DNA from: a virus
Strand: one strand, 5' to 3'
IMG/VR virus record: IMGVR_UViG_3300020195_000005
Coordinates: 1-34,408 of that record
DNA length: 34,408 nucleotides
Shown: positions 21,114-28,995 of the stretch, piece after piece
Layout of the letters: every line of letters begins with the position of its first letter
Numbering within the stretch: position 1 is the stretch's first letter
Translations under genes and position numbers: made by a program
Notes under the pieces: generated by a model
Seen by the model: the letters and a program-made list of their open reading frames with translations, nothing else
The model's database searches: none
What the model was told of the DNA's origin: nothing

Positions 21114-21377
21114 TCAAAATACACCCCTAAATCTGCTTCCTTTGAAAATCTTTAAAGCGGCTATAACCCCGGTTATTTGGGCTTCTATGGGCATCCTTGC
21201 CTCCTCAGGCTGTTCATTTACCCATTCATGCAATTGTGCTTCTACCTGCTCAAAATCGAGCCAATCTTGTGGCGTCAATTTATCCAGGTTTTTTAGGTTC
21301 CATTCGACTGCTTTTAGGTACTTATTAAGCATGTTTAAAAACGTGTTTTTGAAGTGCGACCAAAACTTTTTATACAT
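21114..21377 (-). CDS. Helical protein whose first codons contain an iteron
   Basis: It encodes 87 residues, amphipathic helical (FLNMLNKYLKAVEWNLKNL, DWLDFEQVEAQLHEWV) with an acidic middle and basic end. The DNA coding for YKKFWSHF includes a GTTTTGGTCGCA element shared with the origin region. Ribosome-site spacing at this ATG is poor (CAGG abuts it), so translation might start later, for example at the Met in NMLNKYL. The family is unknown; location beside the origin suggests a replication accessory role. Confidence 0.5.
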   Translation of the reverse strand: MYKKFWSHFKNTFLNMLNKYLKAVEWNLKNLDKLTPQDWLDFEQVEAQLHEWVNEQPEEARMPIEAQITGVIAALKIFKGSRFRGVF

Positions 21378-21631
21378 CCTGCAAAATTCTTCATTTTTTT
21401 TATTATTACTATATATAGTAATATAGTAAAGTCACAAATACTTTTTGGTCGCATTGGACATTATTCATAAACCTTTTAGTTTCAAACACTTAAGCGTGTT
21501 TTGTTTTGGTCGCAAGTTTTGGTCGCACATTAAAGGAATTTTAATAATGACGGTAATAATGTTAAATAATGTTAATAAGGGCGGTCATAAGAGGTAAAAT
21601 CCTGGTTGCGACCAAAACTTGCGACCAAAAC
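21355..21631. other. Candidate replication origin: iterons, inverted repeat and AT-rich palindrome
   Basis: The 12-mer GTTTTGGTCGCA occurs in plus orientation at 21503-21514 and 21516-21527, with an 11/12 copy at 21442-21453. It occurs in minus orientation at 21355-21366, 21607-21618 and 21620-21631. The tandem pairs make a perfect 25-bp inverted repeat (21503-21527 and 21607-21631) separated by 79 bp of AT-rich DNA. A perfect palindrome TTACTATA/TATAGTAA, extending to 20 bp, lies at 21404-21423. The region borders and enters the 3' end of the primase-helicase gene. Iterons beside a primase-helicase resemble the P4 origin. The 194 bp at 21378-21571 has no gene. Confidence 0.65.
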
Positions 21632-23833
21632 TTTTAGTGACATTCCGTGCCAAAACCAGCCTCTATTGTCGTGTTGATTTGATTTGATTTTATTGATACC
21701 AAATTTCTTAGTAATATATGATCCGATTTCGTTTCGGCCAAATGACCGGCATCGTGTCATTTTTTGCCAATTTCTAAACGCGATGACGATCTCGGTAACG
21801 CCCACCGACAGGGTCGTGTCAAATGGTGATGGAATATCGCACATTTCTTCAAAGAACGTTCCTAACACATCGGAATCGTCTTTATGCGTCTCAGTAGAGC
21901 TAGTAACGGTTTGTTCTGTTCCAAGGCCATTTTTCTGCCAGTTCCTGTAGCCCTCAACCATCCATGCGAAGATTCCCTCGTGTTCTGCTTCTAGCTTTTC
22001 ATCAAGGTATCTGTCCGCCTCGTTTGGTCCGAAGAATCGATTAAACGGAATTTCTTTTACTCTCGACCATATTCCGTCATCGGTTCCTGATATGTCAGGC
22101 CTATGGTTTGTGCTGAACCAAATTTTAAACGTTGGATCAAAATCAAAAGGTTCTTTATACATAAATCTCGCTGAAATCTTTTCGCCTCCGGTGAGTGCTT
22201 TTATTTGTTCTTCATCGAATGAGTTTCCGCGGCTTGATTCGCTTACTGTTACAAATCTTGATCCTCTGAGTCGCGCGACATCGGAAGATGCGGCGTTAGA
22301 TGAAGACATTTTCTTTTCGGTTAAAAGCGATGATTGAGAGTTTGAGGCGTAATCTCCTAATATGTAATTGATTCGTTTTACGAATGTTGATTTTCCATTT
22401 CTTCCATTTCCGTAAAGTACAAAAAAACAATGTTCTCGGATATCGTTCCCGATGGAGTATCCAACTGCCTTTTTGACGTACTCAATAAGTGAATCATTGC
22501 CATCAAAGATCTCTTTTAAGAATTGCAGCCATCTTTCGCATTTTGCGTCCGGGTTATAATTAACCTCGACACAGCGTGTGTTTTTTTGTGTTTTATCGTG
22601 GGCTGTTAATTGGAGCGTATTCAAATCGAGCGTTCCGTTTAAACAATTGATCGTGTTTGCTTTATCAAATATATCGTGTGGGACACAAATTCCTTCAAGC
22701 CCGATCAGAGTCTCAATCATCGCTTTTTTCTTTCCAATGGCTTCTCGTTGTACTGCAAATGCCCGCAGTTTTTTATCTTCAGTTTCTGCTGATTTCTTAT
22801 GAATATTCTCAATAACGTTATCGGCTAGACGCATGATTTCAAATGTCTGATCAATCTTCCATTTCTTTTCGTTCCAAACAAGCCAGCCACCGAGCGCATC
22901 GCAGAAGCAGATTTTTTCTCCGTACAATTCCTTGAAAAGCCGGGCCGCCCAAGAATCGGTATAAGCCCATCCTGCGGTTTCTTTTTTTTCATATTTTTCA
23001 TATTTTTCTATACTGAATCCACTTTTTTTTGCTGCGGATAATGTTTCATAGAATTTTTCACCTGCAATGCCGCCTGGTTTTGCTTGTGAGCATTCAATGA
23101 TTCCTTCAATGACTGCGATAAGCGATAGTGCTCCGCCCCCGGAATCGCATCTAAAACATTTCCATACATTCTTTTCCGGGTTAATAAAAAAGTTTTGTTT
23201 TCCTGTTGATCCGTGCACCGGGTGGCTACCGCCCCATTGTCCGCCATGTTTTTGGAGTTCGATTCCTTTTTTTTGAATGATATCCATGACGGATATATCA
23301 CCGAGCTCTACTTGAATATCTTTTTTTGGTTCGGTTGCTGGAATATATTTATGGAGGACTGAGAATATTTCCTCTTTCGAGATGGTATAAATAGGCGTGT
23401 CATTGATCACGATGTAGGGCGTTCCTGTATCGGGGTGAATGGATCCGGGGCCAACAACTTGCCCTCCTCCCGATATAATCTCTCCGAAATGAACTTTATT
23501 TTCTCCTGTTCCGGTTGTGAGAATTATTTTACTTGAAATTTCTTTGCAGTAATAATAAAAATGCTCGCCCATTCTTGGGGTCTTCACTGTGAATGTGTTT
23601 GGGAGCCAGGCTCTGACGCTTTCGCTTATTTCTGCGTTGTCTGCATCAATGATGATGAGCCCATTTGATCCTCCCATAACTCCGAAATTCCCACCGTTTT
23701 CTATCCATTTCAGAATTTCTTGTAGCGGATGCGGTCTTTTTTGCCATGCGTGCTCAAAAGGTTTTTTTGATCTTGTTGGGATCTTTACAAATCCTAACCC
23801 AGCGTCTTTTAGTTGAACTGGAAAATTACTCAT
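21572..23833 (-). CDS. Primase-polymerase / SF3 helicase replication protein
   Basis: It encodes 753 residues from the ATG at 23833 (AGGGGATAGGC before it; an upstream TTG is less likely). A PriPol domain occupies about 1-165 (IIDAD at 61-65; GEIISGGGQVVGPGS near 117-131). A zinc segment at 195-235 has GGSHPVHG and WKCFRCDSGGG. A D5-type region follows, then SF3 helicase with Walker A GNGRNGKST (475-483), the FVTVSES region (527-533) and WFSTNHRP (572-579). It would unwind the origin, prime and perhaps elongate. Its last codons contain two iterons. As no separate DNA polymerase gene is visible, elongation depends on this protein or the host. Confidence 0.9.
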   Translation of the reverse strand: MSNFPVQLKDAGLGFVKIPTRSKKPFEHAWQKRPHPLQEILKWIENGGNFGVMGGSNGLIIIDADNAEISESVRAWLPNTFTVKTPRMGEHFYYYCKEISSKIILTTGTGENKVHFGEIISGGGQVVGPGSIHPDTGTPYIVINDTPIYTISKEEIFSVLHKYIPATEPKKDIQVELGDISVMDIIQKKGIELQKHGGQWGGSHPVHGSTGKQNFFINPEKNVWKCFRCDSGGGALSLIAVIEGIIECSQAKPGGIAGEKFYETLSAAKKSGFSIEKYEKYEKKETAGWAYTDSWAARLFKELYGEKICFCDALGGWLVWNEKKWKIDQTFEIMRLADNVIENIHKKSAETEDKKLRAFAVQREAIGKKKAMIETLIGLEGICVPHDIFDKANTINCLNGTLDLNTLQLTAHDKTQKNTRCVEVNYNPDAKCERWLQFLKEIFDGNDSLIEYVKKAVGYSIGNDIREHCFFVLYGNGRNGKSTFVKRINYILGDYASNSQSSLLTEKKMSSSNAASSDVARLRGSRFVTVSESSRGNSFDEEQIKALTGGEKISARFMYKEPFDFDPTFKIWFSTNHRPDISGTDDGIWSRVKEIPFNRFFGPNEADRYLDEKLEAEHEGIFAWMVEGYRNWQKNGLGTEQTVTSSTETHKDDSDVLGTFFEEMCDIPSPFDTTLSVGVTEIVIAFRNWQKMTRCRSFGRNEIGSYITKKFGINKIKSNQHDNRGWFWHGMSLKVLVASFGRNQDFTSYDRPY

Positions 23834-23889
23834 GCCTATCCCCTTCAATTAAAAAAGAGGGGCGGAGTTTCCCCCGCCCCTGTGTTGTC

Positions 23890-25447: not shown

Positions 25448-26062
25448 TTAATTTTTTGAAACACCACCAGCCCACTTTGGGTTGTCTTTCATTTTCCATT
25501 TTTTAAATAAATAGCATTTTTGAGAGCAATAAATTCTTCGCTGTGATTTCTTAGAACGAAAAACTTTTCTACACTTTTTGCATTTGCTTTTAAAACTAGA
25601 GTTTCTCTTATTATTTCGCTGTTGCTTATCCGTTGCCCAACGGCAATTCTTAGGAGTATAGTTTCCGTTATTATCTATTCTATCCATTGATAAATCAGCA
25701 GTAGGTTTTTTCCCCATATCTTTTATGAAGTTTGAAAAATCAAACCACCTTTTGCATACTTTTATCCCCCTCCCGCCATAATTTTTAAACTCGTTATTTT
25801 TAATATTTGAGCATCTTTGGATCATGTTTGCCCATGCTGTGTATTCTTGAGATTCAGTAAGTCCATGTTTTAAAACCCCTTTTTTTGTACATTCCCCTGT
25901 GCCGCAGCTTTTAGAATAACCTATTTTCAAATTAGTTAAATTAACTATGCGGATTTCCCCACATTTACATTTGCAAAGTAATCGACTGCGCCAGTTTTTT
26001 GATTTTATCGTGTTATCAATTACTGTCCAAAGTCCGAATTTTTTACCTATCTGAATTGACAT
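25448..26062 (-). CDS. HNH-type homing endonuclease-like protein with zinc fingers
   Basis: It encodes 204 residues. An N-terminal cysteine cluster (CKCKCG at 30-35, C53, C58) precedes the nuclease-type region NYGGRGIKVCKRWFDFSNF (95-112) and MDRIDNNGNYTPKNCRWA (126-143), a signature of free-standing phage HNH/AP2-like endonucleases. A C-terminal ribbon follows (CKKC at 161-164, CSQKC at 179-183). It overlaps the helicase 3' end by 16 bases. By eye it is AT-richer than its neighbours, consistent with a mobile endonuclease inserted between helicase and VRR-NUC. Confidence 0.8.
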   Translation of the reverse strand: MSIQIGKKFGLWTVIDNTIKSKNWRSRLLCKCKCGEIRIVNLTNLKIGYSKSCGTGECTKKGVLKHGLTESQEYTAWANMIQRCSNIKNNEFKNYGGRGIKVCKRWFDFSNFIKDMGKKPTADLSMDRIDNNGNYTPKNCRWATDKQQRNNKRNSSFKSKCKKCRKVFRSKKSQRRIYCSQKCYLFKKWKMKDNPKWAGGVSKN

Positions 26063-27929: not shown

Positions 27930-28091
27930 TTAATAACTCAATCCCAATCCGTAATATGTCTTCTGGATAGACCAGCTCTTAGCTAGAATAATATTGGATA
28001 GTCGGTCAATCGTAGCTTGAAGATGTTCAATCTCAGCTTGAAGCTGTTCAATTTTATTATCCAAATCTTTAATGTGTTCTTGTTCGATCAT
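27930..28091 (-). CDS. 53-residue coiled-coil protein
   Basis: The first 35 residues are a near-perfect coiled coil (IKDLDNKIEQLQAEIEHLQA), followed by a short aromatic tail (WSIQKTYYGLGLSY). GAGGAGAATTT precedes the ATG, which overlaps the upstream stop (ATGA). It follows the two alanine-rich paralogues and could be an oligomerisation partner. Function unknown. Confidence 0.65.
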   Translation of the reverse strand: MIEQEHIKDLDNKIEQLQAEIEHLQATIDRLSNIILAKSWSIQKTYYGLGLSY

Positions 28092-28636
28092 AAATTCTCC
28101 TCAATAATTTTAATCCCATAGTTAAAAATATTCTCCTTAACCTCTTTTCTGCCGACTCCATCGGCGGCATTGGCGGAATAGACGGCGGCCATGGCGGCCT
28201 TGGCGGAACCGGCGGAATAGGCGGCGTTGGCGGCGTTGGCGGCGGCATGGGCGGCAAAGGCGACGGCATAACCGTGATAGGCGGCAAAGGCGACATTGGC
28301 GGCGGCAAGGGCGACATTAGCGGCAAGCTCCCTATTCTCGATCGTGTCATCTTTTAGTACAGCCTTAGTAGCATCAATCGCCTGTCTAGGTCTAGCATCG
28401 TCTGGATGTTTCTTTTCCCAAATATCAATAACCTGTTCCGCGGCAAAAATCTCGTACGCCAAATATTGTCGGCGTGTCATAGCCCTCACGATCAGCCAAT
28501 TAGCCCATTCCCAGTGGTCGTCGTTGTTTAGCGATTGCAACACCCGGACAAGCTCGGTCTCTTTTTGATTCTCAAACCAAACTATTCCTTCTTTGCACGC
28601 TTTTTTTGAGTTCAAGAATTCCGTTGTTATTTTCAT
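28088..28636 (-). CDS. Alanine-rich Imm5-like protein, longer paralogue
   Basis: It encodes 182 residues. Residues 1-50 (KKACKEGIVWFENQKETELV, HWEWANWLIV) are shared with the next gene. Then IDIWEKKHPDDARPRQAIDA, a signature of the Imm5-like family seen in phage and polymorphic-toxin immunity genes. About residues 100-160 form an Ala-rich repeat (AANAANAAYSAGSAKAAMAA). The DNA there is a GGCGG/GCC-rich repetitive tract, prone to length change. The C-terminus IFNYGIKIIEENL again matches its paralogue. Strong GAGGAGTT ribosome site. Role unknown; family name is the only clue to toxin or host-factor binding. Confidence 0.6.
   Translation of the reverse strand: MKITTEFLNSKKACKEGIVWFENQKETELVRVLQSLNNDDHWEWANWLIVRAMTRRQYLAYEIFAAEQVIDIWEKKHPDDARPRQAIDATKAVLKDDTIENRELAANVALAAANVAFAAYHGYAVAFAAHAAANAANAAYSAGSAKAAMAAVYSANAADGVGRKEVKENIFNYGIKIIEENL
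28548..28579. repeat. 32-bp direct repeat shared by the two Ala-rich genes (second copy 28907-28938)
   Basis: The same 32 bases, starting ACAAGCTCGGTCTC, occur in both genes and code for the ENQKETELV region. Neighbouring stretches such as AGCCCATTCCCAGTGG and CAATAATTTTAATCCCAT are also shared. This shows recent tandem duplication of the gene rather than convergence. Confidence 0.9.
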
Positions 28637-28995
28637 AACTCCTCCTCAATAATTTTAATCCCATGGTTTAATATTTTTAACATAATATGTTTTTTTGCTG
28701 CAACATAAGCATCAGTGTGAGAAGCGGTATCAACAACAGGAGAATCAGCAGCATCAGCACCATAATAAGCAGTATAAGCAGCTGCAGAATAAGCGGCAGT
28801 AGAATAAGCGGCATATGAAATATATTGTTTGTAGCTCATAATCTTAACGAGCAACCAACTAGCCCATTCCCAGTGGTTGTCGTTGTTCAAAGATTGCACG
28901 ACATTAACAAGCTCGGTCTCTTTTTGATTCTCAAACCATTTAACGCCCGATGAACATGCTTTTTTTTCTAGTAGCCATTCTTTAGTTATTTTCAT
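28633..28995 (-). CDS. Alanine/tyrosine-rich shorter paralogue
   Basis: It encodes 120 residues. The N-terminus (KKACSSGVKWFENQKETELV, HWEWASWLLV) and the C-terminus (ILNHGIKIIEEEL) are nearly those of 28088-28636. The PDDARPRQAID segment is absent. The Ala-rich middle is shorter and tyrosine-rich (AAYSTAAYSAAAYTAYYGAD). It overlaps the longer paralogue by ATGA. It looks like a duplicate that lost or never had the charged central block; hetero-oligomers are possible. Confidence 0.6.
   Translation of the reverse strand: MKITKEWLLEKKACSSGVKWFENQKETELVNVVQSLNNDNHWEWASWLLVKIMSYKQYISYAAYSTAAYSAAAYTAYYGADAADSPVVDTASHTDAYVAAKKHIMLKILNHGIKIIEEEL

What the first reader, a model, noticed from the sequence alone, without database searches (positions are those of the whole stretch)
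21355..21631. Iteron array and 25-bp inverted repeat nested in the primase-helicase 3' end: likely replication origin
Six copies of a 12-mer (GTTTTGGTCGCA, one with a mismatch) lie within 277 bp in both orientations. Tandem copies form a perfect 25-bp inverted repeat around 79 bp of AT-rich DNA, with a separate 20-bp AT palindrome. Two copies are in the last codons of the primase-helicase and one in the first codons of the next gene, so protein sequence is co-selected with the DNA signal. P4 alpha protein binding iterons next to its own gene is the closest known logic.
Basis: partly seen in the sequence, partly recalled or inferred. Interest (0 to 1): 0.75.

Follow-up and report, generated by a model that had tools for sequence, protein, structure and literature searches.

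The report
Phage replication origin beside its primase
A 34-kb phage carries, right at the end of its primase-helicase gene, a cluster of short repeated binding sites around its easiest-to-melt DNA; this is almost certainly where its replication starts, a layout known from phage satellites and a few dairy phages that turns out to be common in phages with this type of primase.

Summary
An 11-bp core, TTTTGGTCGCA, occurs six times in 277 bp, in both orientations, and nowhere else in the 34.4-kb circularly assembled phage genome. Two tandem pairs form a perfect 25-bp inverted repeat around 79 bp. The least stable DNA of the whole genome (21366-21445) lies inside the array, between two divergent copies. 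The neighbouring gene is a PrimPol/SF3-helicase/winged-helix initiator whose family profile matches PDB 7ola/7om0 (SaPI5 PriRep, from memory) along its full length. Homologues have the same anatomy at the same place with different repeat words: arrays downstream in 16 of 51 families against 0 of 46 upstream at p<=0.017 (23 of 51 at p<=0.05), with the melting-prone DNA inside 21 of 23 arrays. Two homologues, phages A2 and phi-adh, have annotated replication origins exactly there. Best reading: a primase-helicase-bound iteron origin (0.92). Iteron sequence tracks the primase's predicted recognition helix (p=0.001 with 33 sequences; not significant with 14).

The parts
21572..23848 (-). Initiator gene: primase-polymerase / CHC2 zinc ribbon / D5_N-DUF5906 SF3 helicase / C-terminal winged helix (758 aa)
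   Evidence: Pfam Prim-Pol, Zn_ribbon_DnaG, D5_N, DUF5906; full-length profile match to PDB 7ola 'DNA primase' E=2.4e-52; C-terminal H-E-H-H-E-E fold matching RFX winged helix
21620..21631 (-). Iteron 1, in primase codons 740-743 (GTTTTGGTCGCA)
21607..21618 (-). Iteron 2, in primase codons 744-748, 13 bp from iteron 1
21528..21606 (.). 79-bp A+T-rich spacer inside the 25-bp inverted repeat; contains the third least stable 50-bp stretch of the genome (21529)
21516..21527 (+). Iteron 3
21503..21514 (+). Iteron 4, 13 bp from iteron 3
21503..21631 (.). 25-bp perfect inverted repeat made by the two tandem iteron pairs; either strand could form a hairpin
   Evidence: single-strand DNA fold -34.1 kcal/mol, z = -8.3
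21442..21453 (+). Iteron 5 (one mismatch at the first base; 11-bp core intact)
21366..21445 (.). Predicted duplex-unwinding element: least stable 80 bp (21366) and least stable 50 bp (21383) of the whole record, flanked by divergent iterons; contains the 20-bp AT palindrome 21404-21423
   Evidence: nearest-neighbour stability scan; palindrome
21355..21366 (-). Iteron 6, in codons 4-8 of the small downstream ORF if its ATG at 21377 is used
21114..21377 (-). Small downstream ORF (87 aa), no Pfam or PHROG match, no detectable similarity to the ORF in that place in relatives

Best explanation
This is the replication origin of a circularly assembled, probably complete 34-kb tailed phage. The product of the adjacent gene, a PrimPol/SF3-helicase initiator, binds the six TTTTGGTCGCA iterons through its C-terminal winged helix (inferred). 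Divergent iterons on either side of the AT-rich stretch 21366-21445 would let two helicase hexamers assemble and melt it (inferred; the stretch is shown to be the least stable DNA in the genome). The primase domain then makes primers and a polymerase, probably the host's, extends them (inferred). The two tandem pairs around the 79-bp spacer are a second inverted unit that could serve as additional loading sites, a cooperativity element or an extrudable hairpin (undetermined).
For: Array unique in the genome and far above chance. Least stable DNA of the genome lies inside it. Neighbour gene has the initiator domain order and its family profile matches PDB 7ola/7om0 along its length; its C-terminus is a predicted winged helix resembling RFX DNA-binding domains, the fold family of the P4 alpha origin-binding domain (PMC10516667). 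Nearest relatives with 37-42% primase identity and conserved operon order have arrays at the same site with other iteron words: CTCCACC, GCTTCACT, GTAGAGA. Over 51 dereplicated full-length primase families an array is detected downstream in 16 at p<=0.017 (23 at p<=0.05) and upstream in 0 of 46 at p<=0.017. In array-bearing loci the least stable DNA lies in the array in 21 of 23 (chance 1.1), and the AT peak was flanked by oppositely oriented iterons in 10 of 10 families. Homologous phages A2 and phi-adh carry annotated rep_origin features exactly there, and those regions hold such arrays. Iteron sequence distance tracks the predicted recognition helix (residues 685-730) more than any other primase segment, p=0.001 over 49 windows with 33 sequences.
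Against: No direct replication or binding data for this phage. GC skew gives no support. About half the homologous families, including actinophages TG1 and GardenState and Vibrio phage 1.055.O, show no detectable array by the same test. The iteron-recognition-helix covariation is not significant after strict dereplication (n=14, p=0.38). The array is ~1 kb from the small terminase gene, which leaves a packaging role possible.
Confidence: 0.92

Rival explanations
1. It is an operator: the primase-helicase (or another phage protein) binds the repeats to regulate primase or downstream transcription, and replication starts elsewhere.
For: Promoter-like matches are denser than expected in the region (8 against 2.5), though the A+T content favours such matches; the downstream genes need a promoter or read-through.
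Against: The array lies 3' of the primase gene, not 5'; it contains the genome's least stable DNA; homologous sites in A2 and phi-adh are annotated as origins. The two functions are not exclusive.
Confidence: 0.04
2. It is a packaging (pac/cos) recognition site bound by the small terminase, whose gene starts ~1 kb downstream.
For: Small terminase gene at 20377-19946 on the same strand.
Against: In the homologous loci the array follows the primase and no terminase is annotated within ~2.5-3 kb downstream; no homologue of the window's terminase was found in the neighbourhoods of the nearest relatives.
Confidence: 0.02
3. The functional element is the 129-bp hairpin (25-bp stem, 79-nt loop) as in the pRN1 plasmid origin, with the iterons only an accident of stem sequence. 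This would still be an origin, working differently.
For: Strong single-strand folding (z -8.3); pRN1's origin is a 21-nt stem with 58-nt loop 3' of a PrimPol-SF3-winged-helix gene, and phage BIP-1 has a similar stem-loop (PMC4234260).
Against: Two further iterons (21355, 21443) lie outside the stem and flank the least stable DNA; the nearest relatives have scattered or tandem iterons at the same place.
Confidence: 0.06

Closest known systems
Lactobacillus phage A2 and phi-adh replication origins
   Same: Homologous primase (29% and 28% identity); annotated rep_origin begins in the last codons of the primase gene and spans an iteron array with A+T-rich centre
   Different: Iteron words differ (ACGGGAGGA; AACTATACAC and AACCCTACA); the window's zinc-ribbon cysteines are absent from them in the alignment
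SaPI/PICI Pri-Rep-ori replicons
   Same: [quoted passage not shown] full-length profile match to PDB 7ola/7om0, titled 'DNA primase', which I identify from memory as SaPI5 PriRep
   Different: The window encodes its own large and small terminase, so it is a phage and not a satellite; asymmetric layout <-[DUE]-> -> ->[79]<- <-
pRN1 plasmid origin and its proposed counterpart in phage BIP-1
   Same: Origin 3' of an AEP PrimPol-SF3-winged-helix gene; stem-loop of about 100 bp (PMC4234260)
   Different: pRN1 has no iterons; here the stem is built of iterons and overlaps the gene end
SCCmec Cch2 helicase and its putative origin
   Same: D5-type helicase binds direct repeats immediately 3' of its own gene through its C-terminal domain (PMC7581432)
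   Different: Separate primase; 5-nt iterons; not a phage
P4 alpha protein with ori and crr
   Same: Primase-helicase with winged-helix origin-binding domain that binds repeats (PMC4234260)
   Different: P4 alpha has a bacterial-type (Toprim) primase per PMC4234260, whereas this protein has a Prim-Pol domain

Membership tests
Phage origin 3' of a PrimPol/D5-type primase (A2/phi-adh type) | Homologous primase-helicase gene immediately upstream | tested here: met
Phage origin 3' of a PrimPol/D5-type primase (A2/phi-adh type) | Iterons in both orientations starting at or in the 3' end of the primase gene | tested here: met
Phage origin 3' of a PrimPol/D5-type primase (A2/phi-adh type) | A+T-rich, easily melted DNA inside the array | tested here: met
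Phage origin 3' of a PrimPol/D5-type primase (A2/phi-adh type) | Drives autonomous replication with the primase | not testable with these tools
   needs a replication assay
[quoted passage not shown]
   definition from PMC6092414
PICI/SaPI replicon | Satellite that depends on a helper phage for virion functions | tested here: not met
   window encodes large and small terminase on a 34.4-kb record with 39-bp identical ends
P4 alpha/ori | Toprim-type primase fused to SF3 helicase | tested here: not met
   Prim-Pol domain instead
P4 alpha/ori | Winged-helix origin-binding C-terminal domain | tested here: met
   predicted fold and RFX-type PDB match, E=0.004; DNA binding itself not tested
pRN1-type stem-loop origin | Long stem-loop just 3' of a PrimPol-SF3-winged-helix gene | tested here: met
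   25-bp stem, 79-nt loop
pRN1-type stem-loop origin | No iterons | tested here: not met
   six iterons

The most novel reading that the evidence does not exclude
PrimPol/SF3 phage initiators and their origins form a co-diversifying lock-and-key system: each lineage keeps the same array architecture 3' of the gene but swaps the iteron word together with the recognition helix of the winged helix. Each phage thus has a private origin, and a readable protein-DNA recognition code exists across the family. [quoted passage not shown]
Probability: 0.45. Interest if true: 0.6.

Novelty: new member of a known kind. Interest (0 to 1): 0.45.

Why it matters
It gives a concrete, testable origin for an uncultivated phage that has no close relatives in the collections searched. 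[quoted passage not shown] The apparent tracking of iteron and recognition helix offers a way to decode initiator specificity.

Tried and rejected
Single-protein scans of IMG/VR with the primase, large terminase and Pam3_Gp34-like protein found no close relative; exact and gapped iteron-pair patterns found nothing in IMG/VR. An alignment of nine diverse primases was too divergent to scan with; five sequences worked. GC skew, raw and detrended, gives no usable origin signal. DnaA boxes: only two in the window, neither in the array. Rfam and tRNA scans were empty. No intrinsic terminator was found in 21.0-22.0 kb. The downstream small ORF is not detectably homologous to the downstream ORF of relatives. 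The shuffle test by 8-mers misses some arrays visible by eye (e.g. L022, L178), so the count of families is conservative. The cited structure paper for SaPI5 PriRep is not held, so the identity of 7ola/7om0 as SaPI5 rests on my own knowledge.

Full report
OBSERVATION. All elements reported are present. The 12-mer GTTTTGGTCGCA occurs six times at 21355-21631, once with a mismatch. The invariant core is the 11-mer TTTTGGTCGCA, three copies on each strand and none elsewhere in the record. In 100 dinucleotide shuffles no 11-mer clustered more than 3 times within 300 bp, against 6 observed. The 25-bp inverted repeat is perfect and is the longest with a loop up to 300 bp in the window. The record has a 39-bp identical end repeat, consistent with a circular assembly. 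On the + strand the order is <-(21355) [77 bp, AT-rich, palindrome] ->(21443) ->(21503) ->(21516) [79 bp] <-(21607) <-(21620).

WHERE THE DNA MELTS. A nearest-neighbour stability scan of the whole record places the least stable 50 bp at 21383 and the least stable 80 bp at 21366, both between the divergent copies at 21355 and 21443. The third least stable 50 bp is at 21529, inside the 79-bp spacer.

THE NEIGHBOUR GENE. ORF 23848-21572(-) has Prim-Pol, CHC2 zinc ribbon, D5_N and DUF5906 domains. A profile of 21 homologues matches PDB 7ola/7om0 ('DNA primase') over its full length, E=2.4e-52; from memory this is SaPI5 PriRep, and the paper is not held. Structure prediction of the last 118 residues gives helix-strand-helix-helix-strand-strand with a disordered tail. 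The best PDB matches are RFX winged-helix domains, E about 0.004, prob 1.00, with modest model confidence (mean pLDDT 69.7). PMC10516667 states that the tail of the related ASFV C962R resembles the P4 alpha origin-binding domain and RFX1. Within the C-terminal family 14 of 16 members match Pfam Pox_D5 and 5 match RFX_DNA_binding at E up to 10 (best 6e-5); the window's own fragment matched none.

IS PROTEIN SEQUENCE CO-SELECTED? Iterons 1 and 2 encode residues 740-748. In the full model residues 741-758 have pLDDT below 50. In the nearest relatives the corresponding tail differs in length and sequence up to a terminal RPY/RPF. The iterons therefore sit in a tolerant linker, and strong protein co-selection is not supported.

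RELATIVES. Scans with a five-primase alignment gave 80 viral and 80 genome loci. The nearest, L020-L030 (37-42% identity), have arrays immediately 3' of the primase with a TATATA-rich stretch, but with different words: CTCCACC, GCTTCACT, GTAGAGA. The close group L020-L025 shares the upstream genes where the flank is held (SNF2 helicase, two small genes, primase). In 149 loci, 9-mer repeat pairs averaged 22 downstream against 2.4 upstream. By exact 8-mers, 82 of 120 full-length-primase loci have at least 4 copies downstream against 2 of 112 upstream; helicase-only homologues mostly do not (4 of 30). These loci are redundant. After dereplication at 70% the shuffle test finds arrays downstream in 16 of 51 full-length families at p<=0.017 (23 at p<=0.05) and upstream in 0 of 46 at p<=0.017. 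In array-bearing loci the least stable 50 bp of the locus falls in the array in 21 of 23, chance 1.1. In a 60% dereplicated set the AT peak was flanked by oppositely oriented iterons in 10 of 10.

KNOWN ORIGINS AT THE SAME PLACE. The GenBank records of Lactobacillus phages A2 and phi-adh annotate rep_origin at -27..+482 and -7..+378 of the primase stop, and those stretches hold such arrays. [quoted passage not shown] The present survey shows it is common in phages. SCCmec Cch2 (PMC7581432) and pRN1 (PMC4234260) are further cases of an origin 3' of an SF3 initiator.

COVARIATION. Across 33 array-bearing primases, iteron distance correlates with winged-helix distance after controlling for helicase distance (r=0.33, p=0.0005), while helicase distance given winged-helix distance does not (r=-0.05, p=0.83). 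In a 30-residue sliding scan the peak of the whole protein is residues 685-730, covering the predicted recognition helix 705-716 and part of the wing; permutation p of the maximum 0.001. With stricter dereplication (n=14) the maximum is no longer significant (p=0.38), although these windows stay second and third. I treat this as supportive, not proven.

MECHANISM. Shown: array, iteron unique within the genome, melting-prone DNA inside it, initiator-type neighbour with predicted winged helix, family-wide positional conservation. Inferred: iteron binding by the winged helix, assembly of two hexamers, melting at 21366-21445, priming, takeover by a polymerase. Not determined: role of the 79-bp inverted unit and whether the array also regulates the downstream genes.

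VERDICT. A real replication origin by strong comparative evidence; a new member of a known kind with a distinctive layout. Confidence 0.92.

Noticed in passing
L024, +213 to +329 from the primase stop: Compared with its near twin L023, L024 carries an extra stretch holding a second, different inverted pair set (GGGACGGCTGGGACGC ... GCGTCCCAAGCGTCCCAA) next to the normal array; possibly an inserted foreign iteron module or a small mobile element.
   Followed up: no
Loci L040, L104, L126, L133, L163, L167 and similar: Short (~465-500 aa) helicase-only homologues, many in Spirochaete/Treponema contigs, mostly lack iteron arrays downstream, unlike full-length PrimPol forms.
   Followed up: partly
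L007:6640-6960: A distant relative with a different primase-helicase also has an array (TGTAAACA / TGTCAACA words in both orientations) directly 3' of its primase.
   Followed up: partly
L030, about +209 from the primase stop: An exact consensus DnaA box (TTATCCACA) lies just beyond the iteron array; the window's array has none.
   Followed up: no
window 28088-28995: Two adjacent ORFs look like paralogues (shared motif KAC..G..WFENQKETELV near the start) with Ala/Tyr-rich tails.
   Followed up: no
window 25448-26062: ORF between the SNF2 helicase and the VRR-NUC-like endonuclease looks like an HNH/homing-type endonuclease by eye.
   Followed up: no
window 21575-21586 (primase C-terminus) and L020-L030: The primases of the window and nearest relatives end in a conserved RPY/RPF tail separated from the winged helix by a variable linker; its role is unknown.
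   Followed up: partly
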